Shown here: piece after piece, positions 4,415 to 29,771 of the stretch
Position numbering within the stretch: the stretch's first letter is position 1
Layout of the letters: every line of letters begins with the position of its first letter
NCBI GenBank assembly: GCA_002256345.1
Contig: NKIY01000001.1
Coordinates: 496,001-560,000 of the forward strand
DNA from: Bradyrhizobiaceae bacterium PARB1
GTDB lineage: Bacteria; Pseudomonadota; Alphaproteobacteria; Rhizobiales; Xanthobacteraceae
Reading direction: 5' to 3'
DNA: 64,000 nt
Position numbers and translations under genes: made by a program
Notes under the pieces: generated by a model
Told to the model about the DNA's origin: nothing
Databases searched by the model: none
Seen by the model: only the letters and a program-made list of their open reading frames with translations

Positions 4415-5521
4415 TCAAAGCTCAAACAATACGCTGGGCGCGGTGTCGCCATTCTGGACACCGATTCCGGTAGCCATCATGCCTCGTCGGTTGAAGACAT
4501 CAAGCTGGAATACTCCGTGAAAGCCGTTAGGGCGGTCAGTACCTTTTGATCTCAGCGCTCGCAGATAGCCGAAGGCAATCAGATTGAGAGCGTCCTCATT
4601 GAGGCGGGCGTCGCTCGACAAGGCGAGGCGTCGCCACTCTTTGATCGCAATAGTCGTTTCTTTGCGGCGATATAGCTGGGTGTAATCCGGAGTATAGTCG
4701 CCCTTAGCTGCAAAAACCCTGCCCGAAAACGTAAACTGTCGGCAGGCATCAACCCATTGCGAGATATGATCCAGCATCTCAACGCCACTGGAGAACTTCG
4801 TTCTGAACGCTTTGACATGATCGACCCATAAGCCAGCCATGTCGGCGCCGTTGAAAATGAGAAGATCGACAAAAGTGTAGAACGCGCGCTTGGGAGCATC
4901 GCCTTCTGTCGATAGTCCCATATCTCGCTGCCAGGCATCTGCGTATCTGAGAGCTTGGGTCAGTTCGTTGTCAATCAGTGCGTCCTGGCGTGATCGCAAG
5001 GGCGGTGACTTGAGCCAGCGGCTGACGTCGCTGCGTATGGATGGTTTCAGTTGACCGGATATCCTCCAGCTCTCAAGCACTCTCAGGGCATCTGCCCTGC
5101 GGGAGGGGTTGGCCGAAGCCTTAATCAGTCTGTCTATATCTGCCCGTATACTCGGCGGCGCTGCTGCGACGAAGTCGGGGCCTCCGTCTTTGAGTAACGT
5201 GGAGTAGATGCTCGAGGAGTTATGATTCCACTGCAAGTAGCCCAAGGAAACGACGTCGGTAGCCGACACATTTCCGTATGCATCTTCGATATTCCGTTTT
5301 CCGGACTCGAATAGAGCAATGATTTCGAGTGCAGTTTGTCGCCAATGAGCTGGCACTGGACGGGCTTCGGGGAGGTGAGGCACCTTTTCTGGTAGAGCAA
5401 GAGCAGGGCGGACGCCCGTGGCTGGATTGACGCCAGGGCACTTTTCCGTCGCTTGAGCGAAAGTCGCTCCGAAGGCCGCGACCGCGCCGCCGCAAATTAC
5501 TGACCGGCGTGACAGGTACAC
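4415..5521 (-). CDS. Tat-exported protein with a lysozyme-like motif
   Basis: A 368-residue protein. The N-terminus has twin arginines followed by a hydrophobic stretch (SRRSVICGGAVAAFGATFAQA), a good Tat signal. After it, residues 63-99 read as a helix with glutamate E72 (LFESG), then AYGN, then SLGYLQWN at 92-99. That order (catalytic Glu followed by G-x-x-S-x-G-x-L-Q-W-N) recalls bacterial lysozyme-superfamily or chitosanase-like hydrolases. If so, the protein would cleave peptidoglycan or another polysaccharide in the periplasm. The remaining 270 residues are mostly helical and unrecognised. It leads a probable two-gene operon with the exported protein downstream. The start ATG follows a weak ribosome site. 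The hydrolase assignment is motif-based inference only. Confidence 0.6.
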   Translation of the reverse strand: MYLSRRSVICGGAVAAFGATFAQATEKCPGVNPATGVRPALALPEKVPHLPEARPVPAHWRQTALEIIALFESGKRNIEDAYGNVSATDVVSLGYLQWNHNSSSIYSTLLKDGGPDFVAAAPPSIRADIDRLIKASANPSRRADALRVLESWRISGQLKPSIRSDVSRWLKSPPLRSRQDALIDNELTQALRYADAWQRDMGLSTEGDAPKRAFYTFVDLLIFNGADMAGLWVDHVKAFRTKFSSGVEMLDHISQWVDACRQFTFSGRVFAAKGDYTPDYTQLYRRKETTIAIKEWRRLALSSDARLNEDALNLIAFGYLRALRSKGTDRPNGFHGVFQLDVFNRRGMMATGIGVQNGDTAPSVLFEL

Positions 5522-17834: not shown

Positions 17835-18182
17835 TCAATCGTTCAGCCGCTTGCGATAGGCGATCGGGTCCATGTCGCGGACATCAACGCTGAGGCTTTT
17901 GGTCTGTGGCAGCAGAGCCGCAAGGGTTTCACGCAGCGATTCGCTGATATTGATCTTCTGCGTGTGGGTCCGGCCTTCCAGCAGATAGACCGAGACGTGG
18001 CAGAAGCCATCTTTCTCCCGCGCTACCAGATAATCTGAAAACGCCGTCGCGCGGACCTTGATGTCCGCAGCCTTCATCGCGCCGGTGTCGGCTGCGGTGT
18101 CATGCACGGCTTCCATCAGCCTGGCGACGTCGAGCAATCCGCCATGGCCGTCGTTGGAATATTCGATGACGAGATGCGGCAT
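17835..18182 (-). CDS. 5-carboxymethyl-2-hydroxymuconate isomerase-like protein (HpaF/CHMI)
   Basis: A 115-residue tautomerase-fold protein. MPHLVIEYS at the N-terminus puts the catalytic Pro at position 2. Together with FCHVSVYLLEGRT and the overall length, this matches CHMI, which isomerises the ring-fission product in the homoprotocatechuate meta pathway. It lies 18 bases behind the IclR gene and is co-directional with the ferredoxin reductase, so it belongs to the catabolic locus at 17.8-29.8 kb. None of the other hpa genes is present. It may therefore act on a related ring-fission product, or the rest of the pathway may lie elsewhere. Confidence 0.82.
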   Translation of the reverse strand: MPHLVIEYSNDGHGGLLDVARLMEAVHDTAADTGAMKAADIKVRATAFSDYLVAREKDGFCHVSVYLLEGRTHTQKINISESLRETLAALLPQTKSLSVDVRDMDPIAYRKRLND

Positions 18183-18200
18183 GGACGTTTCCCCAATTGA

Positions 18201-18986
18201 TCAGAGCAGCAGTGGTTTCACCGTTGCTGCAGCATCGCGCAGCAACGGCAGGAAGCGGTCGATCATCTCGCCAGTGGACACACGGTCCACATGGGCGCCC
18301 ATATTGATCGCGGCGACGATGGCGCCATCATAACGCCGCACCGGCACCGAGATCGAGCGGAAACCTGGCTCGGCCTCGCGATCGACCAGCGAGTAGCCTT
18401 TCTCGCGATCGGTAATGATGGCGGCCTTGATCGATTCCTTGTCGGTCACCGTGAATGGCGTCATCGCCGTCAGTGTCATCGCTTCGAGAATGTCCGTCAG
18501 TTCCTCGTTCGCATATTTGCCAAGCATCGCGCGGCCGACCGACGAGCAATAGGCGGGCAGGCGATAGCCGAGATCGATGCCTGCGGAGAATACACGCGCC
18601 GGGCTCGCACGCGCGACGAAGACAACGTCATTGCCTTGCAGCACGGCGAGCGACGAAATTTCCTGTGCCGCGCTGGAGATCTGGTCGAGCACTGGCTGCA
18701 GGATGGTGACGATCTGGTTCGACGTCATATAGGAGCCGGCCAGCGCCAGCACCTGCGGCGTCAACGCGAACAGTTTCCCGTCGCCGACCACGTAACCGCG
18801 ATGTTCCAGCGTGAACAGAATACGCCGGGCGGTTGCGCGCGGCAGGTCCGCGGCCTTGGCGACATCGCTCAAGGTCATGGGCCGCGAATGGCCACCGAAC
18901 AGCTCGAACACGCGCAAGCCGCGATCGAGACTTTCGATGAAGTCGGTATTGCCGCGTTCCTCGTCGGGCCGTTTGATCTTTGGCAT
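18201..18986 (-). CDS. IclR-family transcriptional regulator
   Basis: A 261-residue regulator. The N-terminal winged helix-turn-helix (about residues 18-80) reads IESLDRGLRVFELFGG, then LSDVAKAADLPRATARRILFTLEHRGYV. The effector domain (about 90-255) includes VGRAMLGKY, GYSLVDREAEPGFRSISVPV and GAIVAAINMGAHVDR. It resembles the PcaR/PobR branch, which controls aromatic catabolism. It sits between the CHMI and reductase genes on the minus strand, 11 bases from the reductase. It probably controls the divergent Rieske operon through the palindromic sites at 20299-20455. The inducer is unknown. Confidence 0.9.
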   Translation of the reverse strand: MPKIKRPDEERGNTDFIESLDRGLRVFELFGGHSRPMTLSDVAKAADLPRATARRILFTLEHRGYVVGDGKLFALTPQVLALAGSYMTSNQIVTILQPVLDQISSAAQEISSLAVLQGNDVVFVARASPARVFSAGIDLGYRLPAYCSSVGRAMLGKYANEELTDILEAMTLTAMTPFTVTDKESIKAAIITDREKGYSLVDREAEPGFRSISVPVRRYDGAIVAAINMGAHVDRVSTGEMIDRFLPLLRDAAATVKPLLL

Positions 18987-18997
18987 GTGGTGTCGGC

Positions 18998-20221
18998 CTA
19001 TTTGCCCGATTCGAATTTCTTCAGATCGAAGGCGAGATCGGCGGCCTGTTCGGGCGTCGGCGACAGAGAAGCGGTAATCAGGCGGCGTGCGATCATCTGG
19101 TCGCCGGGCCGGTTGATACTGTCCACTGCGGTGAGCTTGCCATCGCGATAGTAGAAGACCGAGAACTTGCCGTCATTCATATCGCCGCGGATCACTGCGG
19201 TATCGGTGGGCTCGGACAGGCCGACGATCTGCAGCTTGGCGTCATATTGATCGGACCAGAAGCGCGGCACAGCATCATAGGCTTCCGGCTTGCCCGCGAT
19301 CATCGAGCCCGCAGCCTTGCCCTGATCGGTGGCGTTCTGCACGGCTTCGAGGCGCACGCGTCGGCCGGCGAAGGAGTTGTAATGATTGCTGACATCGCCT
19401 GCGGCATAAATGTTCGCTGCCGAGGTGCGGCCATGTTCATCGACCTCAATACCGTTGGTACTCGCAATGCCGGCCTGCATCGCAAGCTCGTCATTGGCGA
19501 TGCCGCCGATGCCGGCGACGATGAGATCGGCGCGCACGCGCAGGCCGCTCGAGGTGACGACTTCATGCGCGGCCCCATTGCTTTCGATAGCAACAACAGA
19601 TTCGTTGAAGCGGATATCGACGCCGTGCGAACGATGGATGTCGAGCAGGAATTGCGAGATCAGCGGCGACACCGCGCGCTCCAGCAGGCGCGATTGCGCC
19701 TCCATCAGCGTCACTTTCTTGCCGGTCTTGGCGGCAGTTGAAGCGACTTCGAGGCCGATGAAGCCGCCGCCGACGATGACGACGTCTTGCGCTGCTTCGA
19801 GGCGAGGCTTGAGCGTCAGCGCATCGTCGAGCGTGCGCAGATAGACGATGCCGTCGCGGTCGTGACCTGGGATTGTAAGGCGCCTTGCGCGCGAGCCGGT
19901 GGCGATGACGAGCGAGTCGAATGGCAGGCTGTCGCCGCCTTCGAGTTTGATGCGATTGGTTGCGCGATCCAGTTCGACGGCGCGACGGCCGAGCACCATC
20001 TCGATGCCCTGGCCTTTGAAGTAGTCGTCGCCGCGCAGGAAAAGGCTGTTGTGGGCGAGGTCGCCGGACAGGAACGCCTTGGACAGCGGGGGGCGCTGAT
20101 AGGGCAGGTGAATTTCGTCCGCGACAATACGGATCGGCTCCTGATAGCCTTTTTCGCGCGCACTGATACCGGCCTGGACGCCTGCATAAGAGGCGCCGAC
20201 GATGACGAGGCCGTTGCTCAT
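18998..20221 (-). CDS. FAD-dependent ferredoxin reductase-type oxidoreductase
   Basis: A 407-residue NAD(P)H:ferredoxin reductase of the kind that feeds electrons to Rieske oxygenases or cytochrome P450s. The FAD motif GASYAG is at residues 8-13, the segment LPYQRPPLSK is diagnostic, the NADH Rossmann motif GGGFIGLE is in the middle, and the C-terminal FAD segment is IYAAGDVS. I place the start at the ATG at 20221 after AGGGAG; the frame runs 34 codons further without similarity. It is divergent from the Rieske oxygenase, so it is the likely electron donor. However, no ferredoxin gene is present in the locus. Confidence 0.9.
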   Translation of the reverse strand: MSNGLVIVGASYAGVQAGISAREKGYQEPIRIVADEIHLPYQRPPLSKAFLSGDLAHNSLFLRGDDYFKGQGIEMVLGRRAVELDRATNRIKLEGGDSLPFDSLVIATGSRARRLTIPGHDRDGIVYLRTLDDALTLKPRLEAAQDVVIVGGGFIGLEVASTAAKTGKKVTLMEAQSRLLERAVSPLISQFLLDIHRSHGVDIRFNESVVAIESNGAAHEVVTSSGLRVRADLIVAGIGGIANDELAMQAGIASTNGIEVDEHGRTSAANIYAAGDVSNHYNSFAGRRVRLEAVQNATDQGKAAGSMIAGKPEAYDAVPRFWSDQYDAKLQIVGLSEPTDTAVIRGDMNDGKFSVFYYRDGKLTAVDSINRPGDQMIARRLITASLSPTPEQAADLAFDLKKFESGK

Positions 20222-20298
20222 GGGCGCACTCCCTGGGCGCGATCGCCCCGCAATTTCAAAGTGTTCGACATCATTAGCTCCTGATCTCTGTCCGTATA

Positions 20299-20314
20299 TT
20301 GAACAAATGTTCGA
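20299..20314. promoter_or_regulatory. Candidate IclR operator 1 (palindrome)
   Basis: TTGAACAAATGTTCGA is a near-perfect dyad (TGAACA / TGTTCG around AA), 78 bases upstream of the reductase start. IclR proteins bind such short dyads. It shares its GAAC/GTTC half-sites with the array at 20430-20455. Confidence 0.45.
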
Positions 20315-20429
20315 TACTCGCAAGCCGATGTGTTGAGCGGGAAATGCTGCACATGCTCAGTAGGGCAGCAGTTCATGCTGTAAAATTCTGCTTGATTAGA
20401 ATTAGTCCAGCGCTAAAATTCGGACATAA

Positions 20430-20455
20430 GTTCAATAGGCGAACGTAAATCGTTC
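20430..20455. promoter_or_regulatory. Candidate IclR operator 2 (phased GTTC/GAAC array)
   Basis: GTTC at 20430, GAAC at 20441 and GTTC at 20452 form two overlapping dyads (GTTC-N7-GAAC and GAAC-N7-GTTC). The spacing is exactly 11 bases, one helical turn, placing all half-sites on one DNA face. The last is 72 bases upstream of the Rieske start. Confidence 0.45.
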
Positions 20456-20526
20456 AAAGCTGACTTCGCTCACCGGATCGATGTGCTTCGATCAAGTCGA
20501 GTGAAACGAGGAGAGGTCCAAGCGCC

Positions 20527-21894
20527 ATGATGAGCCAAGAGCAGAACGACCTGATCACCCGCGTCGGGCCCAAGGCGCCCGCCGGCAAACTGATGCGCAT
20601 GTATTGGCAGCCTGCCGCGCTCACTGCAGAGCTGGAAGGCGAGCGTCCGATCCGCCCAGTGCGTCTCCTCGGCGAAGATTTCGTTGTCTTCCGTGACGAG
20701 CAGGGCCGCTATGGGCTGCTTGATCGTGACTGCCCGCATCGTGGCGCCGATCTCGCTTTCGGCCGGCTTGAAGGTGGCGGCGTGCGCTGCGCCTTCCATG
20801 GTTGGCTGTTCGATGTCGAAGGCAAGTGCCTGGAAACGCCGGCCGAGCCGAAGAATTCGCGTCTCTGCCAGGGTATCAAGCAGCGCGCTTATCCGGTCGT
20901 GGAGAAGGGCGGCATCCTGTGGGCCTATCTCGGCGAGGGCGAGCCGCCGGCCTTCCCGGAAATCGACTGCTTCGCTGCGCCAGGGCAATACACCTTCGCC
21001 TTCAAGGGCCTGTTTGAGTGCAACTGGCTGCAGGCGTTGGAGGTCGGCATCGATCCCGCTCACGCCTCATTCCTGCATCGCTTCTTCGAGGACGAGGACG
21101 TCAAGGCGTCCTATGGCAAACAGTTCCGCGGCGCTTCGGCCGGCACGGAAGTGCCGATGACCAAGATCCTGCGCGAATATGATCGCCCGATTATCAACGT
21201 GGAATCGACCGAATACGGCTTGCGTCTCATTGCGCTGCGCGAGCTGGATGAGGAGCGCACCCACGTGCGCGTCACTAACCAGCTTTTCCCGCATGGTTTC
21301 GTCATTCCCATGAGCTCGGAAATGACGATCACCCAGTGGCATGTGCCGGTCGATGACGAGAACTGCTACTGGTATGCGATCTTCACCAGCTATACCAAGC
21401 CGGTGGACAAGAAGAAGATGACCGACCAGCGGCTCGAGCTCTATGAGCTGCCGAACTACACCTCGCGCAAGAACAAGCGCAACGATTACGGCTTCGATCC
21501 GCACGAGCAGAAGCACGAGACCTATACGGGCATGGGCGCCGACATCAATGTTCATGACCAGTGGGCAGTGGAGTCCATGGGCAAGATCCAGGACCGCACG
21601 CGCGAGCATCTTGGCTCCAGCGACAAGGCAATCATCGCCTATCGCAAGCTGCTCCGCGCAGAGATCGAGAAGGTCGCCGGCGGCCAGAAGCCGCTGCTGT
21701 TCCTCGATGCCGACAGCGCGCGCAGCATTCAGGGGCCGGGCACCATGGATGGTATCGGCCCGAGCAAGGGCTGGGAAACCTACTGGATGGAAGTTGATGT
21801 CGCCCGCCGCCGCGGCGCGCCATGGATGGCGCCGGTGCCTGCCGATCAGACCGAGCCCGGCCACAACGTCGTCCATCTGCCGGCGGCAGAGTAA
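20527..21894 (+). CDS. Rieske non-haem iron oxygenase, phthalate-dioxygenase type
   Basis: A 455-residue oxygenase alpha subunit. The Rieske [2Fe-2S] motif is C69-P-H71 ... C88-A-F-H91. The mononuclear iron site is NWLQALEVGIDPAHASFLH with bridging D176 and ligands H179 and H184. The length and the lack of a beta-subunit gene place it with phthalate 4,5-dioxygenase or O/N-demethylase-type enzymes, which hydroxylate rings or remove alkyl groups. Both ATG codons at 20527 and 20530 are usable after GAGGAGAGG. It opens the plus-strand operon and faces the reductase and IclR genes. A palindromic repeat separates it from the GS-like gene. The substrate is unknown. Confidence 0.9.
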   Translation: MMSQEQNDLITRVGPKAPAGKLMRMYWQPAALTAELEGERPIRPVRLLGEDFVVFRDEQGRYGLLDRDCPHRGADLAFGRLEGGGVRCAFHGWLFDVEGKCLETPAEPKNSRLCQGIKQRAYPVVEKGGILWAYLGEGEPPAFPEIDCFAAPGQYTFAFKGLFECNWLQALEVGIDPAHASFLHRFFEDEDVKASYGKQFRGASAGTEVPMTKILREYDRPIINVESTEYGLRLIALRELDEERTHVRVTNQLFPHGFVIPMSSEMTITQWHVPVDDENCYWYAIFTSYTKPVDKKKMTDQRLELYELPNYTSRKNKRNDYGFDPHEQKHETYTGMGADINVHDQWAVESMGKIQDRTREHLGSSDKAIIAYRKLLRAEIEKVAGGQKPLLFLDADSARSIQGPGTMDGIGPSKGWETYWMEVDVARRRGAPWMAPVPADQTEPGHNVVHLPAAE

Positions 21895-21904
21895 GTTTAA
21901 GGCC

Positions 21905-21992
21905 GTAGGGTGGGCAAAGCGAAGCGCGCTCACCACGTCGTGCATGGATCGCAATGGTGGGCACCGCGCGAGGGAGCCTTTGCCCACCCTGC
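21905..21992. repeat. Dispersed palindrome, GTAGGRTGGG family (copy B)
   Basis: Outer arms GTAGGGTGGGCAAAG (21905-21919) and CTTTGCCCACCCTGC (21978-21992) enclose an inner GCGCGCTCACCAC / GGTGGGCACCGCGC pair. It lies between the Rieske and GS-like genes and could reduce or process read-through within the operon. Confidence 0.7.
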
Positions 21993-22014
21993 AGCTTGGC
22001 TGTCGTAGGAGAGC

Positions 22015-23454
22015 ATGTTGAGTTTCGTTGAACGTCACGGTTTGTGGTCCGCGGAGCAGAAAGAAGCAGCCGCAAGGCTGCGCGCCCTGGTCGAGGAGCA
22101 GCGGCTGGAAGTGATCCGGCTTTCGTTCCCAGATCAGCATGGCATCCTGAGAGGCAAGACGCTGATCGCAAGCGAAGCGTTGCGCTGCTTCGAAAGCGGC
22201 TGCTCCATCACCACGACGATGTTCGCCAAGGACACTTCGCACAAGACGGTGTTTCCGGTGTTCACGTCTGGCGGCGGCTTCGGCATTCCTGAGATGCAGG
22301 GTGCAGCCGACGTGCTGATGATCCCCGATCCGACGACATTCCGGGTGTTGCCTTGGGCGCCTGAGACGGGTTGGATTCTGTGCGATGTGCATTTCGCCGA
22401 TGGTCGCCCTGTGCCTTTCGCGACACGAAATCTGTTCAAGAAGGTACTCGGAGATCTTGAGACGCGCGGCTACGATTTCATCGCCGGCCTCGAAGTCGAG
22501 TTTCACATCTTCCGCGTCGAAAACGAACGGATGAAACCGGAAGATGCCGGGCAGCCCGGCAATCCACCGGAAGTCAGCCTGCTGTCGCATGGCTACAATT
22601 ATCTCACCGAGCAGCGCTACGATCAGATGGAGCCCGTGCTGGAGATCATCCGGCGCGATGTGCTGGCGCTGAACCTGCCATTGCGCTCGGTGGAGGTCGA
22701 ATACGGCCCGAGCCAGTGCGAGTTCACGTTTCAGCCGACAGTCGGTCTGACGCCTGCCGATAGCATGGTGCTGTTTCGATCAGCCGTGAAGCAGATCGCG
22801 CATCGTCACGGTTATCACGCGACTTTCATGTGCCGTCCGAAGATTCCGAATGTGGTGTCGTCGGGCTGGCATCTGCATCAGTCGATCGTGTCGCGCGCCA
22901 CGGGCGCCAATGCATTCATGCCGACCGAGGGTACGCAGCCGCTATCGTCGTTCGGGCAGGGGTACCTCGCCGGTCTGCTCGCGCATGCGCGCGCGGCAAC
23001 TGTGTTCACCACACCGACCATCAACGGTTACAAGCGCTATCGCTCCTATTCGCTGGCGCCGGACCGTGCCATCTGGGGCAGGGATAACCGTGGCGCGATG
23101 CTGCGTGTGCTGGGCGGTCCTAACGATCCTGCCACGCGTATCGAGAACCGCGTCGGCGAGCCGGCCGCCAATCCATATCTCTATATGTCGTCGCAGATTC
23201 TCTCGGGCCTGGACGGTGTCGATCGCAAGCTCGATCCTGGACCAAGTGCCGATACGCCTTACGAGACCAATGCCGATCTCCTGCCGAAATCGCTGCGCGA
23301 GGCAACGTTCGCGCTCAAGGAGGATCCGTTCTTCCGCGAGAAGATGGGCGCGACCATGGTCGACTATTATACGCACATCAAGAATGCTGAAATCGATCGA
23401 TTCCAGGCAGAAGTTTCCGACTGGGAGCAGCGCGAATATTTCGAAATGTTCTGA
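22015..23454 (+). CDS. Glutamine synthetase-like gamma-glutamyl ligase
   Basis: A 479-residue glutamine synthetase family protein. The metal and substrate residues are kept: Glu pairs in GLEVEFHIF and EVEYGPSQCEFTF, the histidine motif SGWHLHQS, the arginine segment NGYKRYRSYSLAP, and RIENRVGEPAANPYLY. It should therefore be active. It differs from GlnA in length and in the N-terminus, and resembles the ligases that glutamylate amines (PuuA, aniline TdnQ/AtdA1, isopropylamine IpuC types). In this operon a role in ATP-dependent gamma-glutamylation of an amine substrate is more likely than ammonia assimilation, but this is inference. The ATG at 22015 follows a TAGGAGAGC ribosome site. Confidence 0.85.
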   Translation: MLSFVERHGLWSAEQKEAAARLRALVEEQRLEVIRLSFPDQHGILRGKTLIASEALRCFESGCSITTTMFAKDTSHKTVFPVFTSGGGFGIPEMQGAADVLMIPDPTTFRVLPWAPETGWILCDVHFADGRPVPFATRNLFKKVLGDLETRGYDFIAGLEVEFHIFRVENERMKPEDAGQPGNPPEVSLLSHGYNYLTEQRYDQMEPVLEIIRRDVLALNLPLRSVEVEYGPSQCEFTFQPTVGLTPADSMVLFRSAVKQIAHRHGYHATFMCRPKIPNVVSSGWHLHQSIVSRATGANAFMPTEGTQPLSSFGQGYLAGLLAHARAATVFTTPTINGYKRYRSYSLAPDRAIWGRDNRGAMLRVLGGPNDPATRIENRVGEPAANPYLYMSSQILSGLDGVDRKLDPGPSADTPYETNADLLPKSLREATFALKEDPFFREKMGATMVDYYTHIKNAEIDRFQAEVSDWEQREYFEMF

Positions 23455-23561
23455 GCCGCGACGATGACGCGCACCCCGCGTCGTTGCAACGATAATCGGC
23501 ACGTTTATTGAATACGAACAACGACATCAAAATGCATCGATCACTTGAGGGGACAACCAGA

Positions 23562-24737
23562 ATGATAAAGATGAGCCGTTCGATACTTGCACTGGCGATC
23601 GTGGGCGCGATGACGGGAACGGCGAATGCCGACGTCATCAAGGTCGGCGTCATCGGCACCATGTCGGGGCCGTATGCGCTGTTCGGCAAGAACTTCAAGA
23701 TGGGCATCGACGCCTGGGTCGCCGAGAACGGCAACAAGGTCGGCAACCACACCGTCGAATTTATCTATCGTGACGAGGAAGCGCCGAATCCCGCCAAGTC
23801 GAAGGCGCTGGCGCAGGAACTGCTCGTCAAGGACAAGGTGCAATATCTCGCCGGCATCTATTTCACGCCGAATGCCATGGCTGTCGCGCCGCTGCTGGAA
23901 GAATCCAAGACGCCGCTGATCGTGATGAATGCGGCAACCTCGTCCATCGTCGAGAAGAGCCCCTATATCGTTCGCACTTCATTCACCATGTGGCAGAACA
24001 CCGTGCCGGCTGCGAAGGTCGCGTTCAAGAACGGTGCGAAGAAGGTCGCGATTGCCGTCAGCGACTATGGTCCGGGCATCGATGCCGAAGCTGCGTTCAA
24101 AAAGACCTTTGAAGGCGAGGGTGGCGCGGTCGTCGAAGCGATCCGCATTCCGCTCGCCACCACTGATTTCAGCCCGATCATGCAGCGTATCAAGGACTCC
24201 GGCGCTGACACGATCTTCACCTTCCTGCCGTCCGGTCCGCCGACCCTCGGTTTCGTCAAGGCTTATATCGATAACGGCCTGAAGGCCGGCGGCGTCAAGC
24301 TGATGTCGACCGGTGACGTCGTTACCGAGCCGGATCTGCCGAATATCGGCGACGCCGGCATCGGCATCCTTTCGACCTATCACTATTCGGTGTCGCACGA
24401 CTCCAAGGAAAACGCCGCCTTTCTCGCTGCAATGAAGAAGGCCGGTGCGGGCAATGATGAGGTCACCATGACCTCGGTCGCCGCCTATGACGGTGCGCGC
24501 CTGATCTACAAGATGATCGAGGCCACCGACGGCAAGCGCGATCCTGCCAAGGCCGTGGATGCGGTCAAGGACATGAAGTGGGTGTCGCCGCGCGGTCCGG
24601 TGTCGATCGATCCCGCGACCCGCCACATTCGCCAGAACGTCTATCTGCGCAGCGTTGCCAAGGTGGACGGCAAGTTGATCAACAAGGAAGAACAGACCTT
24701 TGCCGATCAGCCCGACTGGGCGCTGAGCAAGCAGTAA
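23562..24737 (+). CDS. Liv-type ABC transporter substrate-binding protein
   Basis: A 391-residue periplasmic binding protein (Peripla_BP_6). I choose the ATG at 23562 because GAGGGG lies ten bases upstream and a signal peptide starts there (MIKMSRSILALAIVGAMTGTANA, cleaved before D24). The frame is open to a TTG at 23508. The mature start VIKVGVIGTMSGPYALFGKNFK and later SYDGA-type segments (VAAYDGARLIYKMIEA) are typical. These proteins bind amino acids, amides or aromatic acids. Position in the Rieske/GS operon suggests it brings in the pathway's substrate. Confidence 0.9.
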   Translation: MIKMSRSILALAIVGAMTGTANADVIKVGVIGTMSGPYALFGKNFKMGIDAWVAENGNKVGNHTVEFIYRDEEAPNPAKSKALAQELLVKDKVQYLAGIYFTPNAMAVAPLLEESKTPLIVMNAATSSIVEKSPYIVRTSFTMWQNTVPAAKVAFKNGAKKVAIAVSDYGPGIDAEAAFKKTFEGEGGAVVEAIRIPLATTDFSPIMQRIKDSGADTIFTFLPSGPPTLGFVKAYIDNGLKAGGVKLMSTGDVVTEPDLPNIGDAGIGILSTYHYSVSHDSKENAAFLAAMKKAGAGNDEVTMTSVAAYDGARLIYKMIEATDGKRDPAKAVDAVKDMKWVSPRGPVSIDPATRHIRQNVYLRSVAKVDGKLINKEEQTFADQPDWALSKQ

Positions 24738-24747
24738 GGACTGGTCA

Positions 24748-24787
24748 TTCCGGGGCGCGTGCAGCGCCAGTCGTCCGCGTCCCGGAA
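24748..24787 (+). other. Hairpin after the substrate-binding protein gene
   Basis: TTCCGGGGCGCG (24748-24759) faces CGCGTCCCGGAA (24776-24787), an imperfect 12-base stem with one bulge. It starts ten bases past the stop codon and has no T run. It may protect the upstream mRNA and so raise binding-protein expression relative to the permease. Confidence 0.55.
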
Positions 24788-24808
24788 ACTCGAAATGTTA
24801 AATCTCAG

Positions 24809-26440
24809 ATGACTCACGCCGCGTCCTCTATCTTTCTCACCAACGGCCGTATCTATCGTTCCGCCTGGGACGAGGCTCCCGCGGACAGTATCGTCGTCAG
24901 CGATGGCAGGGTGATCTGGACCGGCGCCGCGGATGCCGCGCCTGCTGCCGATGAGATTATCGATCTCAACGGCGCGACGGTTATCCCCGGTCTCACCGAC
25001 GCGCATATCCATCTGTTTGCGATCGCCCATGCCCGCCTGCAGGTGCCGGTGACGCCGCGCGATGCATCGGCAGTCGATGCCGTTCTCGCGTTGCTAGTGA
25101 AGCGTGCGGGTGACATTCCGACCGATAAATGGGTGCTCGGCGCAGGCCTCGACGAGAATGGTCTGGTTGAACACCGACTGCCGACGCGGGCCGAAATCGA
25201 CGCCGCCATTCCCGATCATCCCGTGCTGATCCGCCGCTTCTGCGGCCATGTCGCTGTCGTCAACAGCAAAGCGCTGGAGCTGCTCGACATCGACGATAGC
25301 ATCGCCGATCCCGAGGGCGGCACCTTCGGCCGCACGGCAGACGGCCTGCTCGATGGCTGCGCCAAGGAGAGCGCAGCCGAGCTGATTTTCCGTGCAGCGC
25401 CGCCAATGGATCGGGATGAATTGGTCGCCGCCTTGCGCGCGACCGTCGTGGACAGCGCGCGCATGGGTCTCGTTGCGGCCGTGGAGGCCGCAGTCGGCTT
25501 CACCGTCGGCTTCGATGACGAATTCGCAATTTGGAATGAGCTGCGCAAGGGTGGCGCTGTGCCGATGCGCCTCGGCTTCATGAACCAGCTCGATCCCGAT
25601 GAGGCCGCCGAGCGCGAGCTTGCGCCGACGCAGGACGCCGACTGGCAGTCCATGAGCCTGAAATATTTTGCGGACGGTATCGTTGGCGCGCGTACCGCTG
25701 CGGTCAGCGAAGACTATGCGGACACCCCTAGCCGCGGCTTCTTCATGCGTGAGGAGGCCGAATTGCAGCGCGTGATCGGCGAGGCGCATGCGGCCGGCTG
25801 GCAGGTGGCCGTGCATTGCTGCGGCGATCGCGCCAGCAACTGCATCATCGAGGCCTATGAGAAGGCGCAGGCCGCGAACCCGCGCGCCGATATGCGCCAT
25901 CGCATCGAACATTATTTCGTGCCTCCTGAAGATGGGCTCGCGCGCATGAAGGCGCTGGGCGCACTGGTCGTCACCCAGCCGAGCTTCCTCACGCGCATGC
26001 GCCGCTCCATCGCCGGTGCTTTCGGCGCGCGTGCCGATCGCTGTTATCCTGCCCGCTCGGTCATCGATGCCGGCGTCACCTATATCGCCAGCTCGGACGC
26101 GCCCACCGGCTCCTGGTCGCCGTGGGATGGTATCGGCGATGCCGTCGGCCGTGCATCGGACGGCGGCGCGGCCATCGGGCCAGGCGAAGCGGTGAGCGCG
26201 CGCGAGGCCATTCACAGCTATACGGTGGGCGGTGCCATCGCTATGAAGCAGGAGCAGTGGCGTGGTACGCTGATGCCCGGCATGGCCGCGGATCTCATCG
26301 CGCTCGATCGCGATCCCTTCACCTCGGATGCCGCTTCGCTGAAATCGATGCAGGTGTTACTGACCATCACGCGCGGCGCCGTCGTCCATGACGCCATGTC
26401 GCAGCGATCGGAATGGCGCCCGGCTGCGCATTCGGCATAG
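24809..26440 (+). CDS. Amidohydrolase family 3 (YtcJ/NfdA-like)
   Basis: A 543-residue metal-dependent hydrolase of the amidohydrolase superfamily. The metal-binding motif DAHIHLF is followed by KYFADGIVGARTAA, HCCGDRA, HRIEHYF and the aspartate in SSDAPTGSW. This order fits the YtcJ group, which includes N-substituted formamide deformylase NfdA. It should cleave an amide or formamide bond. The ATG at 24809 is chosen; the longer frame overlaps the binding protein. It is inserted between the binding-protein and permease genes of the ABC system, so uptake and hydrolysis are linked. It might act on the gamma-glutamyl amide or on the imported amide itself. Confidence 0.87.
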   Translation: MTHAASSIFLTNGRIYRSAWDEAPADSIVVSDGRVIWTGAADAAPAADEIIDLNGATVIPGLTDAHIHLFAIAHARLQVPVTPRDASAVDAVLALLVKRAGDIPTDKWVLGAGLDENGLVEHRLPTRAEIDAAIPDHPVLIRRFCGHVAVVNSKALELLDIDDSIADPEGGTFGRTADGLLDGCAKESAAELIFRAAPPMDRDELVAALRATVVDSARMGLVAAVEAAVGFTVGFDDEFAIWNELRKGGAVPMRLGFMNQLDPDEAAERELAPTQDADWQSMSLKYFADGIVGARTAAVSEDYADTPSRGFFMREEAELQRVIGEAHAAGWQVAVHCCGDRASNCIIEAYEKAQAANPRADMRHRIEHYFVPPEDGLARMKALGALVVTQPSFLTRMRRSIAGAFGARADRCYPARSVIDAGVTYIASSDAPTGSWSPWDGIGDAVGRASDGGAAIGPGEAVSAREAIHSYTVGGAIAMKQEQWRGTLMPGMAADLIALDRDPFTSDAASLKSMQVLLTITRGAVVHDAMSQRSEWRPAAHSA

Positions 26441-26448
26441 GATCACCC

Positions 26449-27318
26449 ATGCGTACCATCTTCAGCATCATGACCGACGCCGTCGCCTACGGGATGGTGC
26501 TGTTCATCATCTCCATCGGCCTGTCGATCATGATGGGCCTCATGCGCGTGGTGAACCTTGCCCATGGTGCCTTCGCCATGATCGGCGGCTATCTCGCCTC
26601 CTATGCATTGCGCGACCTCGGCGTGCATTACAGCGTCGCCATCCTGATTGCGGTGGTCGGCGCCATCGTCGCCTCGATCCCCTTCGAACTGCTGCTGTAT
26701 CGGCGCATCTACCGCAAGGCCGATCCCCTGATCCAGGTGCTGATGACCATCGGCATCACTTTCCTCATTATCGGCATCGTCAATGGTATCTTCGGCCCCT
26801 CGTTGAAGCCGATCCCGCTGCCGCCGACCCTGAGTGGTCCGCTCGATATCGGCTTCCGCATGCTGCCGACGCACCGCGTCTTCGTCATTGCCTGCGGCAT
26901 CGTCGTGGCGCTGGCGCTCTGGCTGCTGATCGAAAAGACCGAATTTGGCATCAAGCTGCGCGCCTCCGTCGATCACAGCGGCATGGCCGATGCGCTCGGC
27001 ATCCGAACCGAGATCATCTATGCCGCGACCTTTGCTCTTGCCATCGGTCTCGGCGCCTTCGGCGGCGTGGTCGGTGCGGAGATCCTGCCGATAGAACCCT
27101 TCTATGCGCTGCGCTATATGGTGACCTTCCTCGTTGTCGTCTCCGTCGGCGGCGCTGGATCGATCCTCGGTGCGCTGTCGGCATCGTTGTTGCTCGGCCT
27201 CGCCGATACGACCGGAAAATATCTCGCGCCTGAATTCGGCGATTTCTTCTTCTATCTCTCGGTGATCGTCATCGTGTTTCTGTTCCCGCACGGCCTCTTC
27301 GGTAAGGCGCACGCATGA
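26449..27318 (+). CDS. Liv-type ABC permease (LivH)
   Basis: A 289-residue inner-membrane permease with about eight helices (MVLFIISIGLSIMMGLMRVVNLAHGAFAMIGGY is the typical family start). The ATG at 26449 is eight bases after the amidohydrolase stop. It pairs with LivM to form the translocation channel. It overlaps the LivM gene by four bases (ATGA). Confidence 0.92.
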   Translation: MRTIFSIMTDAVAYGMVLFIISIGLSIMMGLMRVVNLAHGAFAMIGGYLASYALRDLGVHYSVAILIAVVGAIVASIPFELLLYRRIYRKADPLIQVLMTIGITFLIIGIVNGIFGPSLKPIPLPPTLSGPLDIGFRMLPTHRVFVIACGIVVALALWLLIEKTEFGIKLRASVDHSGMADALGIRTEIIYAATFALAIGLGAFGGVVGAEILPIEPFYALRYMVTFLVVVSVGGAGSILGALSASLLLGLADTTGKYLAPEFGDFFFYLSVIVIVFLFPHGLFGKAHA

Positions 27319-28316
27319 GCGACATTGCCGTGACCCACATTCCCCACAAGCGCAGCGTCCCGTTCGCTCAGGAGGCTGGTGGCGCACTCGCCATCCTGGC
27401 GCTCGGCGCTGTCGGCTATTTCCTCTACCCCGACGATCTGGCCTTCCTGACCCGCCTCATCGGCATCGCATTCCTGGTGCTGTCGCTCGATCTCGTCACT
27501 GGCTATTGCGGCGTCGCGACGCTCGGCCATGCCGCACAGTTCGGCGTCGGCGCCTATGCGGCGGGGATCGCGTGCGTCCGCGGCGTCACCGATCCCGTTG
27601 CCTTGCTGGCGGTCGGCCTGTTCGCGGGCACAGTCATGGGGTTGATCTCGGGCGCCTTGATCACCCGTTTCCGCGGATTGCCTCAACTCGTGTTGTCGAT
27701 TGCCATCGGCCAGCTCGTTGCCGGTCTTGCCAACAAGCTGTCCTGGCTCACCGGCGGTAGCGACGGCCTGTCGGGTATTGAGCCTGGCAAGGTGTTCGGT
27801 GTGTTCGGCTTCGACATGTATAGCCGCACGGCCTTCCTGTTCTCGCTCGGCGTTCTGGTGATCACATTCGTCGTGCTCCAACGTTTCGTCCGCTCGCCAT
27901 TCGGCCTGATGTGCCGCGGCATCAAGGACGACGATCTGCGTGCCAGGATGATTGGCGTCTCGATCTATCCGCGCCTCGTCGCGATGTATGGTGTCGCAGG
28001 AGCCGTCGCCGGCATCGGCGGCGCTCTGACGGCGATTTCGACCGGTGTCGTTGGTCTCGACAGCGTCAGCTTCGAACGCTCGGCGGAGGTGCTGGTGATG
28101 CTCGTGCTCGGCGGGGCCGGGCATCTGTGGGGTGCGCTGGCAGGCACGGTTATCTTCATGATCTTCGAGCATATCGTGGCCGCCGCCAATCCATACCACT
28201 GGATGACGCTGGTTGGCCTGTTGCTCATCCTGATCGTCGTTTTCGCGCCGCGCGGCCTGATCGAGCCGGCTCTGTCGCTGCTGGCGAAGTTCAAGCGCAA
28301 GGGAGAGGCGGCATGA
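27315..28316 (+). CDS. Liv-type ABC permease (LivM)
   Basis: A 333-residue permease. After a hydrophilic N-terminus (about 20 residues) it has roughly nine to ten membrane helices. The conserved features are LGHAAQFGVGAYAA, LVLSIAIGQLVAG and GAGHLWGALAGTVIFM before a C-terminal IVVFAPRGL. It forms the heterodimeric channel with LivH. It starts inside the LivH stop and overlaps the LivG start, so translation is coupled throughout. Confidence 0.92.
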   Translation: MSDIAVTHIPHKRSVPFAQEAGGALAILALGAVGYFLYPDDLAFLTRLIGIAFLVLSLDLVTGYCGVATLGHAAQFGVGAYAAGIACVRGVTDPVALLAVGLFAGTVMGLISGALITRFRGLPQLVLSIAIGQLVAGLANKLSWLTGGSDGLSGIEPGKVFGVFGFDMYSRTAFLFSLGVLVITFVVLQRFVRSPFGLMCRGIKDDDLRARMIGVSIYPRLVAMYGVAGAVAGIGGALTAISTGVVGLDSVSFERSAEVLVMLVLGGAGHLWGALAGTVIFMIFEHIVAAANPYHWMTLVGLLLILIVVFAPRGLIEPALSLLAKFKRKGEAA

Positions 28317-29077
28317 CCGATCTCCTCGAAGCCCGCAGCGTCTCCCGCTCCTTCGGCGGCCTGCATGTGACCCGCGATGTCAATTTCAAGCTCGCGTCCG
28401 GCGATCGTGTTGCATTGATAGGCCCGAATGGCGCGGGCAAGACGACGTTGGTGAATCTCATCACTGGCGATATCGCGCCGAGCGAAGGCCAGTTCTTCAT
28501 GGGTGGCGATGACATTACCCACCTGAGCATTCCCGAGCGCGTTCGCCGCGGCCTGGTGCGTACCTTCCAGACGACGCGGCTGTTCGCCAATCTCACAGTC
28601 GCCGACAATGTCGCGCTGGCGATCATGCAACGCAAGCGCATCAGCCGCCGCTTCTTTTCCAGCTCGACGGAAATGCCCGAAGTGAAAGCCGAATGGAGCG
28701 AGATTCTCGCGCGTCTCGGTCTTGATCGCCTCGCATATCGCAAGGTGGTCGAACTCGCTTATGGCCAGCAGCGCCTGATTGAGCTCGCCATCGGTCTGGC
28801 GCTACGCCCGAAGGTGCTGCTGCTCGACGAACCGGCCGCCGGCGTGCCGCATGACGAGGCGCCAAAAATTCTCGATGCCATCAACCGCCTGCCGTCCGAC
28901 ATCGCCGTGCTGATGATCGAGCACGATATGGATCTGGTGTTCAAATTCGCCAAGCGCGTGCTGGTGCTGGCGGCCGGGCGGCTGATCTTCGAGGGATCGC
29001 CCCAGGACGTCACAGCCGATCATGAAGTGCGCCGCGCCTATCTCGGGAGCTATGCCGATGCCCGCCGCAGCGCTTGA
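28313..29077 (+). CDS. Liv-type ABC ATPase (LivG)
   Basis: A 254-residue ATP-binding subunit. Walker A is GPNGAGKTT, the Q-loop segment is VRTFQTTRLFANLTVADNV, the signature region reads VVELAYGQQRLIELAIGLA, and Walker B is VLLLDEPAAGV. The C-terminal extension (EVRRAYLGS) is typical of LivG. The ATG overlaps the LivM stop (ATGA). The signature YGQQR is standard for this subfamily rather than LSGGQ. The substrate is set by the binding protein at 23562. Confidence 0.92.
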   Translation: MTDLLEARSVSRSFGGLHVTRDVNFKLASGDRVALIGPNGAGKTTLVNLITGDIAPSEGQFFMGGDDITHLSIPERVRRGLVRTFQTTRLFANLTVADNVALAIMQRKRISRRFFSSSTEMPEVKAEWSEILARLGLDRLAYRKVVELAYGQQRLIELAIGLALRPKVLLLDEPAAGVPHDEAPKILDAINRLPSDIAVLMIEHDMDLVFKFAKRVLVLAAGRLIFEGSPQDVTADHEVRRAYLGSYADARRSA

Positions 29078-29771
29078 GATTCGCGGCCTTTGCGCCGGCT
29101 ATGGGCAGACCCGCATCATCGAGGATGTCTCTTTCGACGTGCAACCCGGCGATCGCCTGGCGGTGCTCGGCCGCAACGGCATGGGCAAGACGACGCTATT
29201 GGCGACCCTGATGGGGCTGACCACGCGTCACGGCGGAGAGATCAGGCTCGGCGAAGACAACATCGCCGGCCGCCGCACCTCAGCACGCGCTGAACTTGGC
29301 ATCGGCTACGTGCCGCAAACCCGCGATATCTTCGCTTCGCTGACGGTTGAGGAAAACTTGCGCGCCGGCCTCAAGGGTCGCCCGCTGTCGGCACTGGACG
29401 AGGCCTATGCGATGTTCCCGCGTCTGCGCGAGCGCCGCGGCAATTTCGGCAAGCAGCTTTCCGGCGGTGAGCAGCAAATGTTGTCCATGGCCCGCACACT
29501 GCTCGGCAAACCGTCAATTCTGTTGCTCGACGAGCCGCTCGAGGGACTGGCGCCGGTTATCTGCGACGAATTGATGGCTATGCTGGTCAAGCTCGCCGCC
29601 ACCGGCGAGATGACCATCATCCTGGTGGAACAGCAGATCGAACGTGCGCTCGACTTTGCGAACAGCGTCATGGTGATGGAGCGCGGGCGCACGAGTTGGA
29701 CCGGAACGCCCGAGACTCTGAAGAGCGATCACGGGTTGATCGATCGCCTGGTCGGTGTCGGCATCCACTGA
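29058..29771 (+). CDS. Liv-type ABC ATPase (LivF)
   Basis: A 237-residue ATP-binding subunit, the second of the pair. Walker A is GRNGMGKTT, the signature LSGGEQQM, and Walker B ILLLDEPLEGLAP. GGGAG at 29045-29049 is eight bases from the ATG at 29058, which I prefer over ATGs at 29022 and 29052. It overlaps LivG by 20 bases. This is the last gene of the plus-strand operon; no clear terminator follows before the convergent hypothetical gene. Confidence 0.92.
   Translation: MPAAALEIRGLCAGYGQTRIIEDVSFDVQPGDRLAVLGRNGMGKTTLLATLMGLTTRHGGEIRLGEDNIAGRRTSARAELGIGYVPQTRDIFASLTVEENLRAGLKGRPLSALDEAYAMFPRLRERRGNFGKQLSGGEQQMLSMARTLLGKPSILLLDEPLEGLAPVICDELMAMLVKLAATGEMTIILVEQQIERALDFANSVMVMERGRTSWTGTPETLKSDHGLIDRLVGVGIH

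What the first reader, a model, noticed from the sequence alone, without database searches (positions are those of the whole stretch)
17835..29771. Candidate amine/anilide catabolic system: Rieske oxygenase, GS-like ligase, amidohydrolase and dedicated Liv transporter
Seen: one IclR gene lies between a CHMI-like isomerase and a ferredoxin reductase. These face a tight plus-strand run of Rieske oxygenase, GS-like ligase with intact active site, binding protein, family 3 amidohydrolase, LivH, LivM, LivG and LivF. Known: GS-like ligases glutamylate aniline (TdnQ/AtdA1) and isopropylamine (IpuC) before oxygenation. Inference: an amine or anilide is imported, glutamylated, oxygenated and released by the amidohydrolase. 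This gene combination does not match a pathway I know.
Basis: partly seen in the sequence, partly recalled or inferred. Interest (0 to 1): 0.75.

Follow-up and report, generated by a model that had tools for sequence, protein, structure and literature searches.

The report
Probable 4-aminobenzoate-to-protocatechuate gene cluster
This stretch of a soil bacterium's genome most likely encodes the import and breakdown of 4-aminobenzoate, the vitamin building block PABA: the amine is first tagged with glutamate, then an oxygenase turns it into protocatechuate, a common food molecule; two published strains that grow on PABA had no genes found for this step.

Summary
In detail: all eleven genes are present and intact in the stated order. 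The Rieske and GS-like genes are a fixed pair (117 of 120 loci), of the type of the sad genes for 4-aminobenzenesulfonate rather than aniline TdnQ/AtdA1, so the combination is not unprecedented. The product is probably protocatechuate: in Afipia relatives the same run of genes continues into pcaH-pcaG; elsewhere the pair lies near pcaB-pcaD, pobA or pnbB. The regulator is a PcaR/PcaU/PobR-type IclR; a PcaU-like palindrome at the Rieske promoter occurs in 85 of 98 loci with the IclR gene, 0 of 22 without. The binding protein matches PDB 4evs and 4f06, recalled as 4-hydroxybenzoate complexes. A lysine replaces the tunnel phenylalanine of aniline ligases in 119 of 120 loci. Best reading: 4-aminobenzoate is imported, N-gamma-glutamylated, 3,4-dioxygenated and released as protocatechuate. 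No activity was shown; 3-aminobenzoate and sulfanilate remain possible; the amidohydrolase's role and the absent ferredoxin are unexplained.

The parts
17835..18182 (-). CHMI-like tautomerase (115 aa, starts Met-Pro). Possible role: turning the dienone left after loss of the amide into the catechol; inferred only
   Evidence: PF02962 51.5 bits; NCBIfam CHMI equivalog far below cut-off, 20 of 215; relatives beside the ligase gene in SA1, Palleronia and Pseudooceanicola and directly after pcaHG in L150
18201..18986 (-). IclR-family regulator of the PcaR/PcaU/PobR group, divergent from the main operon
   Evidence: TIGR02431 307 bits, cut-off 284.75
18998..20221 (-). FAD-dependent ferredoxin reductase, probable electron supply for the oxygenase
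   Evidence: PF07992 and PF14759; NCBIfam AndAa 345 bits, below cut-off 650; start codon read from the sequence
20430..20444 (+). Operator-like palindrome GTTCAATAGGCGAAC at the Rieske promoter, probable IclR site
   Evidence: only match of GTTCRNNNNNYGAAC in the 64 kb window; chance mean 0.16, 14 of 100 shuffles had a match; same pattern in 86 of 121 upstream regions, 0-1 of 121 in letter shuffles; in 85 of 98 loci with a divergent IclR gene, 0 of 22 without (window left out); PcaU/PcaR motif class in PMC8222616 (passages)
20527..21894 (+). Rieske non-haem iron oxygenase alpha subunit of the LigXa/phthalate-dioxygenase type (SadA-like)
   Evidence: PF00355 65.9 bits, PF19301 92.9 bits; CxH-CxxH and D-x2-H-x4-H motifs present; 78% to the SA1 plasmid protein
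22015..23454 (+). GS-like gamma-glutamyl-arylamine ligase (SadB-like), proposed 4-aminobenzoate ligase
   Evidence: PF00120 270 bits; best solved relative is 8wwu, 478 bits, taken as NpaA1 because its sequence carries the residues that the NpaA1 paper numbers; tree; active-site map; tunnel lysine
23562..24737 (+). Periplasmic binding protein with signal peptide, probable para-substituted benzoate binder
   Evidence: 694 and 688 bits to PDB 4evs and 4f06; that these hold 4-hydroxybenzoate is recalled, the output gives no ligand
24809..26440 (+). Amidohydrolase family 3 enzyme, accessory; possible N-acyl- or glutamyl-arylamide hydrolase
   Evidence: PF07969 306 bits; present in 22 of 31 loci with the transporter
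26449..27318 (+). LivH-type permease
   Evidence: PF02653
27315..28316 (+). LivM-type permease
   Evidence: PF02653
28313..29077 (+). LivG-type ATPase
   Evidence: best models UrtD and LivG, both below cut-off
29052..29771 (+). LivF-type ATPase (start codon uncertain)
   Evidence: PF00005 104.5 bits

Best explanation
The locus is an uptake and catabolic cluster for 4-aminobenzoate (PABA) or a very close amino-benzoate. Steps: (1) the binding protein and LivHMGF import the para-substituted benzoate. (2) The GS-like ligase, with ATP and glutamate, makes N-gamma-glutamyl-4-aminobenzoate; a lysine in its entry tunnel holds the carboxylate. (3) The Rieske oxygenase, fed by the FAD reductase and a ferredoxin from elsewhere in the genome, dihydroxylates carbons 3 and 4. 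(4) The amide nitrogen leaves, most simply as glutamine, and the ring re-aromatises to protocatechuate, perhaps helped by the CHMI-like tautomerase. (5) Protocatechuate enters the beta-ketoadipate pathway through PcaHG encoded elsewhere. The IclR protein, of the PcaR/PcaU/PobR group, controls the operon through the palindrome at 20430-20444. Shown by computation: pairing, family membership, operator-like motif and its link to the IclR gene, tunnel lysine, and pca/pob/pnb neighbours in relatives. Inferred: the substrate, every reaction, glutamine as leaving group, and the roles of CHMI and the amidohydrolase.
For: Product: in L050 and L054 (Afipia) Rieske-ligase-binding protein-amidohydrolase-LivHMGF is followed about 45 bases on, same strand, by pcaH (scored on L054: 378.6 bits, cut-off 296.4) and pcaG (scored on L050: 270.6, cut-off 126.25); L149 (G197) shows the same run. 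Four genomes of the family search (G065, G168, G188, G197; G168 has the contig length of L054) have pcaH 7.0-7.8 kb from the ligase, left end to left end. A Roseobacteraceae plasmid has ligase-CHMI facing pcaB-pcaD. pobA lies within about 7 kb of the ligase in 5 loci (named by family score in L113, by 67-71% identity in the rest) and pnbB in 4 plasmid loci (PF16155, 4-hydroxylaminobenzoate lyase, 201 bits in L086; annotated DUF4863 in L084; 80-81% identity in L151 and L152). Regulator and operator: 85 of 98 loci with the IclR gene have the palindrome, 0 of 22 without it. Substrate class: binding protein (RPA0985 and RPA4029 of R. palustris bind 4-hydroxybenzoate in PMC3223731, passages); lysine at the NpaA1 position-75 equivalent in 119 of 120 loci, in the SA1 ligase and in nine other plasmid rows that have this oxygenase, against Phe in NpaA1, DcaQ, Sphingobium CFD-2, Rhodococcus CS98 and Rhizobium BG4. 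Chemistry: in the naphthylamine system the gamma-glutamyl amide is the direct oxygenase substrate (PMC11335346, passages). The genome has two pcaH genes. Open gap: PMC6460240 and PMC8879955 (passages).
Against: No activity, growth or expression data for this organism. pca genes are not in the window; pcaHG adjacency was seen in one genus only, plus pcaBD on one plasmid. 3-Aminobenzoate would also give protocatechuate. The characterised relatives known to me act on 4-aminobenzenesulfonate. No ferredoxin gene in the locus; a search of the genome gave three matches, none on the window's contig, best 43% identical; in the 120 loci a ferredoxin gene was seen in only 3 and the reductase gene in 24. 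Of 93 family genomes with the ligase, 35 lack pcaH at the threshold used; the association (odds ratio 3.0) is not corrected for relatedness, nor are the palindrome counts. The palindrome is in only 2 of 6 plasmid loci and 3 of 17 divergent ones, and not in SA1. In 50 of 120 loci benzoate-CoA ligase or benzoate-regulator genes lie nearby, which do not point to protocatechuate. The position-75 lysine could be shared ancestry; two rows without this oxygenase have neither Phe nor Lys there (Stutzerimonas His, PuuA Met).
Confidence: 0.7

Rival explanations
1. The physiological substrate is 3-aminobenzoate (or another meta-amino benzoate); oxygenation at carbons 3 and 4 would also give protocatechuate.
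For: Same product and therefore the same pca neighbours and regulator type.
Against: R. palustris binding proteins of this kind bind para-hydroxybenzoate (PMC3223731 passages; the link to 4evs/4f06 is recalled); pobA and pnbB neighbours handle para-substituted benzoates; SadAB acts on a para-amino acid.
Confidence: 0.1
2. It is a sulfanilate (4-aminobenzenesulfonate) system like the sad operon, making 4-sulfocatechol.
For: 70-78% identity to the pair on the plasmid of sulfanilate degrader SA1; the SA1 ligase nests among the window's relatives (14-row group, 92/93); the window's genome has a second pcaHG-pobA-like-pcaB cluster with a maleylacetate reductase-like gene (44% to SA1's) on contig C14.
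Against: In the relatives that run on into ring-cleavage genes, the pcaH genes scored (L054, L149) are above the protocatechuate equivalog cut-off; the pair is common in Bradyrhizobium and the ligase in 93 of 198 family genomes, unlikely for a mainly man-made compound; PMC5632844 itself argues for a natural analogue.
Confidence: 0.08
3. One reading: an aniline or anilide is imported, glutamylated, oxygenated and freed by the amidohydrolase.
For: Gene families are those named; NpaA1 is the best solved relative of the ligase.
Against: Oxygenase is the alpha-only LigXa type, not the alpha-beta type beside the ligases of L088, L092 and L093; ligase outside the aniline clade (100/98 support for that clade); tunnel Phe replaced by Lys; binding protein of benzoate type; amidohydrolase not conserved.
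Confidence: 0.06
4. The natural substrate is an N-acylated or conjugated 4-aminobenzoate (for example 4-acetamidobenzoate or a folate fragment), which the amidohydrolase first opens; the rest is as in the best explanation.
For: Amidohydro_3 gene inside the run in 22 of 31 transporter loci; a second one beside the pair in Cupriavidus (PF07969) and, by similarity to it, in seven of the 40 loci L100-L139; no GATase (the AtdA2/TdnT part) in the window's locus.
Against: 9 of 31 transporter loci lack it; no function known for its nearest solved relatives.
Confidence: 0.25

Closest known systems
sad operon, 4-aminobenzenesulfonate 3,4-dioxygenase (Hydrogenophaga intermedia PBC; Novosphingobium resinovorum SA1)
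   Same: Rieske oxygenase paired with a GS-like ligase plus reductase; SA1 plasmid proteins 78% and 70% identical; same ligase group and same tunnel lysine. The Hydrogenophaga sequences themselves were not compared
   Different: Window adds a benzoate-type Liv importer, an amidohydrolase and a PcaR-type IclR; relatives lead to ordinary pcaHG rather than 4-sulfocatechol genes; no ferredoxin gene in the locus
Aniline and chloroaniline dioxygenase systems (Atd/Tdn/Dca) and the 1-naphthylamine system (Npa)
   Same: Glutamylation by a GS-like ligase before Rieske oxygenation
   Different: Two-subunit oxygenase, GATase present, tunnel with Phe75, separate ligase clade
Liv-type aromatic-acid binding proteins of Rhodopseudomonas palustris (RPA0985, RPA4029, RPA0668/HbaE)
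   Same: The window's binding protein matches the solved chains 4evs and 4f06 at 694 and 688 bits; which R. palustris gene each chain is, is recalled
   Different: HbaE-I lies with anaerobic CoA-dependent benzoate genes (PMC3223731 passages); here the importer is beside an aerobic ligase-oxygenase pair
PobA and PnbAB peripheral routes to protocatechuate
   Same: Same product, and the same neighbourhood in 5 and 4 loci
   Different: Those use a flavin hydroxylase or a nitroreductase plus lyase; this uses a ligase plus a Rieske oxygenase

Membership tests
Sad-type amine ligase-dioxygenase | Rieske alpha-only oxygenase of LigXa/phthalate-dioxygenase type | tested here: met
   PF19301 92.9 bits and PF00355; best solved relatives include a putative phthalate 4,5-dioxygenase, 7fhr
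Sad-type amine ligase-dioxygenase | GS-like gene immediately beside the oxygenase gene | tested here: met
   window, and 117 of 120 loci; the 13 plasmid records with a Rieske hit of at least 52% all carry the ligase
Sad-type amine ligase-dioxygenase | Ferredoxin and FAD reductase genes | tested here: inconclusive
   reductase present; no ferredoxin gene in the locus, distant homologues elsewhere in the genome; ferredoxin near in SA1, Methylobacterium nodulans, Caballeronia, Polaromonas, L054, L134, but in only 3 of 120 loci
Sad-type amine ligase-dioxygenase | Activity on 4-aminobenzenesulfonate | not testable with these tools
   needs enzyme or growth assay
Aniline-type (Atd/Tdn/Npa) system | Two-subunit (alpha and beta) oxygenase and GATase partner | tested here: not met
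   no beta subunit or GATase in the locus; both present in L088 and L093
Aniline-type (Atd/Tdn/Npa) system | Ligase in the DcaQ/NpaA1 clade with aromatic tunnel residues | tested here: not met
   tree; Lys instead of Phe75, though Phe86 is kept
Ammonia-assimilating GlnA | Asp50 and Glu327 equivalents; curated GlnA score | tested here: not met
   Pro81 and Leu347; TIGR00653 223 bits, cut-off 429; the genome's own GlnA is a different gene
PuuA gamma-glutamylputrescine synthetase | Curated family score | tested here: not met
   NF045547 236 bits, cut-off 650
PcaR/PcaU/PobR regulators | Curated subfamily score and GTTCG-type palindromic operator | tested here: met
   307 bits, cut-off 284.75; palindrome at 20430
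PcaR/PcaU/PobR regulators | Response to an aromatic acid effector | not testable with these tools
   needs induction or binding assay
4-Aminobenzoate-to-protocatechuate route (proposed) | Ring-cleavage genes for protocatechuate in the same operon | tested here: not met
   not in the window itself; met in relatives L050, L054 and L149; own pcaH copies lie on contigs C1 and C14
4-Aminobenzoate-to-protocatechuate route (proposed) | Ligase and oxygenase act on 4-aminobenzoate | not testable with these tools
   needs enzyme assay

The most novel reading that the evidence does not exclude
A widespread bacterial pathway for the folate precursor 4-aminobenzoate exists that captures its nitrogen as glutamine: ligase, LigXa-type oxygenase and a CHMI-like tautomerase together convert 4-aminobenzoate, glutamate, ATP and oxygen to protocatechuate and glutamine. 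The sulfanilate-degrading sad genes are an offshoot of it.
Probability: 0.4. Interest if true: 0.75.

Novelty: new variant of a known kind. Interest (0 to 1): 0.6.

Why it matters
Bacteria that grow on 4-aminobenzoate are known, but two genome papers state that no genes for it could be found (PMC6460240, PMC8879955; passages). This locus gives named candidate genes, a product and a regulator, so the question can be tested directly. It also offers a natural ancestor for the sulfanilate genes, whose original substrate was left open in PMC5632844. The ligase was found at E 1e-150 or better in 93 of 198 genomes of the family (at least one of these, G082, is of another type).

Tried and rejected
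Rejected: ammonia-assimilating GlnA and PuuA; aniline or anilide substrate; GATase-dependent Atd-type system (no GATase in the locus). Tried with little result: PcaR site recalled as a 15-mer, 2 mismatches at 20309 but the total number of hits is near chance (5 against mean 2.2), replaced by the conserved palindrome; Rieske pocket residues of phthalate dioxygenase (looked at by eye), not discriminating and not used; genome-wide association of ligase with pcaH, weak and not corrected for kinship; nearest solved relatives of the amidohydrolase, function unknown. Ten paper searches listed no paper that I could see assigning a ligase-Rieske pair to 4-aminobenzoate; most subscription journals are not in that library, so this does not prove absence. 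The original sad gene papers (Gan 2012, Hegedus 2017) were not read; what I know of them beyond PMC5632844 and PMC6167471 is recalled.

Limits of counts: the 80 loci are the best 80 of at least 585; the 40 are my choice from the 94 matches (20 divergent, 20 closer). Upstream regions: 121 of 127 candidates (80 + 40 loci, 6 plasmid loci, window) had the Rieske gene in place and at least 150 bases; by group the palindrome was in 70 of 77 (L004-L083), 3 of 17 (L100-L119), 10 of 20 (L120-L139), 2 of 6 plasmids, and the window. GyrB, RecF, DnaN, DnaA and Liv names were given by eye.

Full report
What is there. The window lies in a 6.95 Mb genome, and the loci nearest to its ligase gene are mostly from Bradyrhizobium, Tardiphaga and Afipia. 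The plus-strand run from the Rieske gene to LivF is compact, and no terminator-like site lies in its gaps.

The pair. The GS-like gene has the Rieske gene directly upstream in 117 of 120 loci examined (the three misses are L100, L101 and L119). In plasmids, 13 records have a Rieske hit of at least 52% identity, and all 13 are also in the list for the ligase; the next hits fall to 40% (top 40 of 671 and top 25 of 44 records seen). So the oxygenase and the ligase are probably one functional unit. The transporter is a less constant partner: binding protein plus LivH on the same strand in 31 of 120 loci, 22 of them with the amidohydrolase; reductase gene in 24, ferredoxin gene in 3, IclR gene in 95 and CHMI-like gene in 25 of 120. 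Annotated plasmid relatives have MFS, TRAP or other ABC importer genes nearby.

Which ligase. The best solved relative is 8wwu (478 bits), which agrees in numbered residues with NpaA1, the 1-naphthylamine ligase. In a 31-row tree the window's protein falls in a 20-row group (91/99) with the ligase of Novosphingobium resinovorum SA1 and plasmid relatives, and with SA1 in a 14-row group (92/93). The aniline-type rows (NpaA1, DcaQ, Stutzerimonas, Sphingobium) form their own group (100/98); GlnA and PuuA lie far away. Two rows that have this oxygenase, Nitratireductor and Novosphingobium RL4, fall outside the 20-row group with weak support. SA1 is a sulfanilate degrader (PMC6167471 table, passages; PMC5632844), and its locus has a maleylacetate reductase gene upstream. 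That this copy is the working SadB of SA1 is inference. The ligase keeps E160, E162, E229, E236, H286, R341, R359, R375, E377 and R379, equivalents of GS residues, and lacks the equivalents of Asp50 and Glu327. PMC11335346 describes loss of conserved GS catalytic residues in organic-amine ligases (passages).

Which kind of amine. PMC11335346 (passages and two sections) names the entry-tunnel residues of NpaA1. At position 75, Phe in NpaA1, DcaQ, Sphingobium CFD-2, Rhodococcus CS98 and Rhizobium BG4, the window has Lys. So do 80 of 80 loci, 39 of 40 further loci, the SA1 ligase, seven other plasmid rows and two. The one exception among the 120 loci, L119 with Phe, has no such Rieske gene nearby. 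Not every other row has Phe there: Stutzerimonas has His and PuuA has Met. A positive charge in the tunnel fits an amine with an acid group; shared ancestry is the alternative.

Which product. In two Afipia loci the run of genes continues into pcaH and pcaG, and L149 shows the complete order Rieske-ligase-binding protein-amidohydrolase-LivHMGF-pcaH. pcaH lies 7.0-7.8 kb from the ligase in four genomes of the family search, one of them the same as L054. In Palleronia the ligase is followed by a CHMI-like gene and faces pcaB-pcaD (pcaD by annotation). pobA is near the pair in L113, L114, L115, L117 and L118, and pnbB in L084, L086, L151 and L152. PobA and PnbB make protocatechuate and PcaHG cleaves it (established pathway knowledge; the family names are). 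The IclR protein is of the PcaR/PcaU/PobR subfamily. A palindrome GTTCR-N5-YGAAC stands before the Rieske gene in 86 of 121 regions, with half-sites kept and spacer changing between lineages. It is found in 85 of 98 loci with a divergent IclR gene and in 0 of 22 without one; among the divergent loci L100-L119 it is in 3 of 3 against 0 of 14. The published PcaU and PcaR motifs are of this class (PMC8222616, passages). Neither count is corrected for kinship.

Which substrate. Protocatechuate from an amine by 3,4-dioxygenation means 4- or 3-aminobenzoate. The binding protein matches PDB 4evs and 4f06 at 694 and 688 bits, recalled as 4-hydroxybenzoate complexes from R. palustris strains. PMC3223731 reports that R. 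palustris proteins of this kind bind 4-hydroxybenzoate or benzoate (passages). Together with the para-acting Sad enzymes this favours 4-aminobenzoate. In 50 of 120 loci, all from the list, a benzoate-CoA ligase-like or benzoate-regulator-like gene lies within about 8 kb, which again says benzoate-like but not protocatechuate.

How it works. In the naphthylamine system the gamma-glutamyl amide is the direct substrate of the oxygenase and a dihydroxy product results (PMC11335346). By analogy the window's pair makes N-gamma-glutamyl-4-aminobenzoate, oxidises carbons 3 and 4, and the unstable product loses the amide. Loss of glutamine rather than glutamate plus ammonia is my inference. The CHMI-like protein recurs with the ligase or with pcaHG in several lineages and may speed the final tautomerisation; this too is inference. 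The amidohydrolase may open N-acyl or glutamyl conjugates, or stand in for the GATase of aniline systems.

What is not explained. No ferredoxin gene is in the locus, though some relatives have one; the genome's nearest homologues are 43% identical. Of the 20 divergent loci L100-L119, 19 show no reductase gene like the window's and none the window's importer; several lie next to genes that look like gyrB, recF and dnaN. Of 93 ligase-bearing family genomes 35 lack pcaH at the threshold used.

Novelty. A ligase-Rieske pair is known (sad, atd, tdn, npa). What is new, as far as ten searches of one open library show, is the assignment of this pair to 4-aminobenzoate and protocatechuate, with importer and regulator. 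Two papers report growth on 4-aminobenzoate and say that no genes were found (PMC6460240, PMC8879955; passages).

Noticed in passing
L144:8557-10230 and L143:10001-11242: In two Rhodobacterales plasmids the oxygenase has no Rieske domain; in Pseudooceanicola a separate 132-aa Rieske protein is encoded just upstream of a 409-aa LigXa_C protein. A split Rieske oxygenase.
   Followed up: partly
L103-L118: In 7 to 9 of the 20 divergent loci the Rieske-ligase pair lies beside genes that look by eye like gyrB, recF and dnaN, perhaps near the replication origin.
   Followed up: partly
L147 (own genome, contig C14, 146-158 kb): A second pcaHG-like set with a pobA-like gene, pcaB, a maleylacetate reductase-like gene and, by eye, a TRAP-type binding protein; substrate unknown.
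   Followed up: partly
L122-L126, L128, L135: A second amidohydrolase gene, 47-50% identical to the Amidohydro_3 gene beside the pair in Cupriavidus, lies just upstream of the Rieske gene.
   Followed up: partly
L085:1343-2173: A dihydropteroate synthase gene (folP) lies on the SA1 plasmid about 8 kb from the sad-like Rieske gene; possibly protection against 4-aminobenzoate analogues.
   Followed up: no
window:2001-6000: G+C drops to 0.55-0.56 against 0.61-0.62 on either side; the two large ORFs there (2460-4355, 4415-5521) gave no Pfam match at 1e-15.
   Followed up: no
window:33425-38078: What looks like a second Liv-type ABC transporter set on the minus strand, about 4 kb downstream; only its binding protein was scanned (PF13458).
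   Followed up: no
window:17064-17140: tRNA-Pro gene just outside the cluster; signs of an integrated element were not looked for.
   Followed up: no
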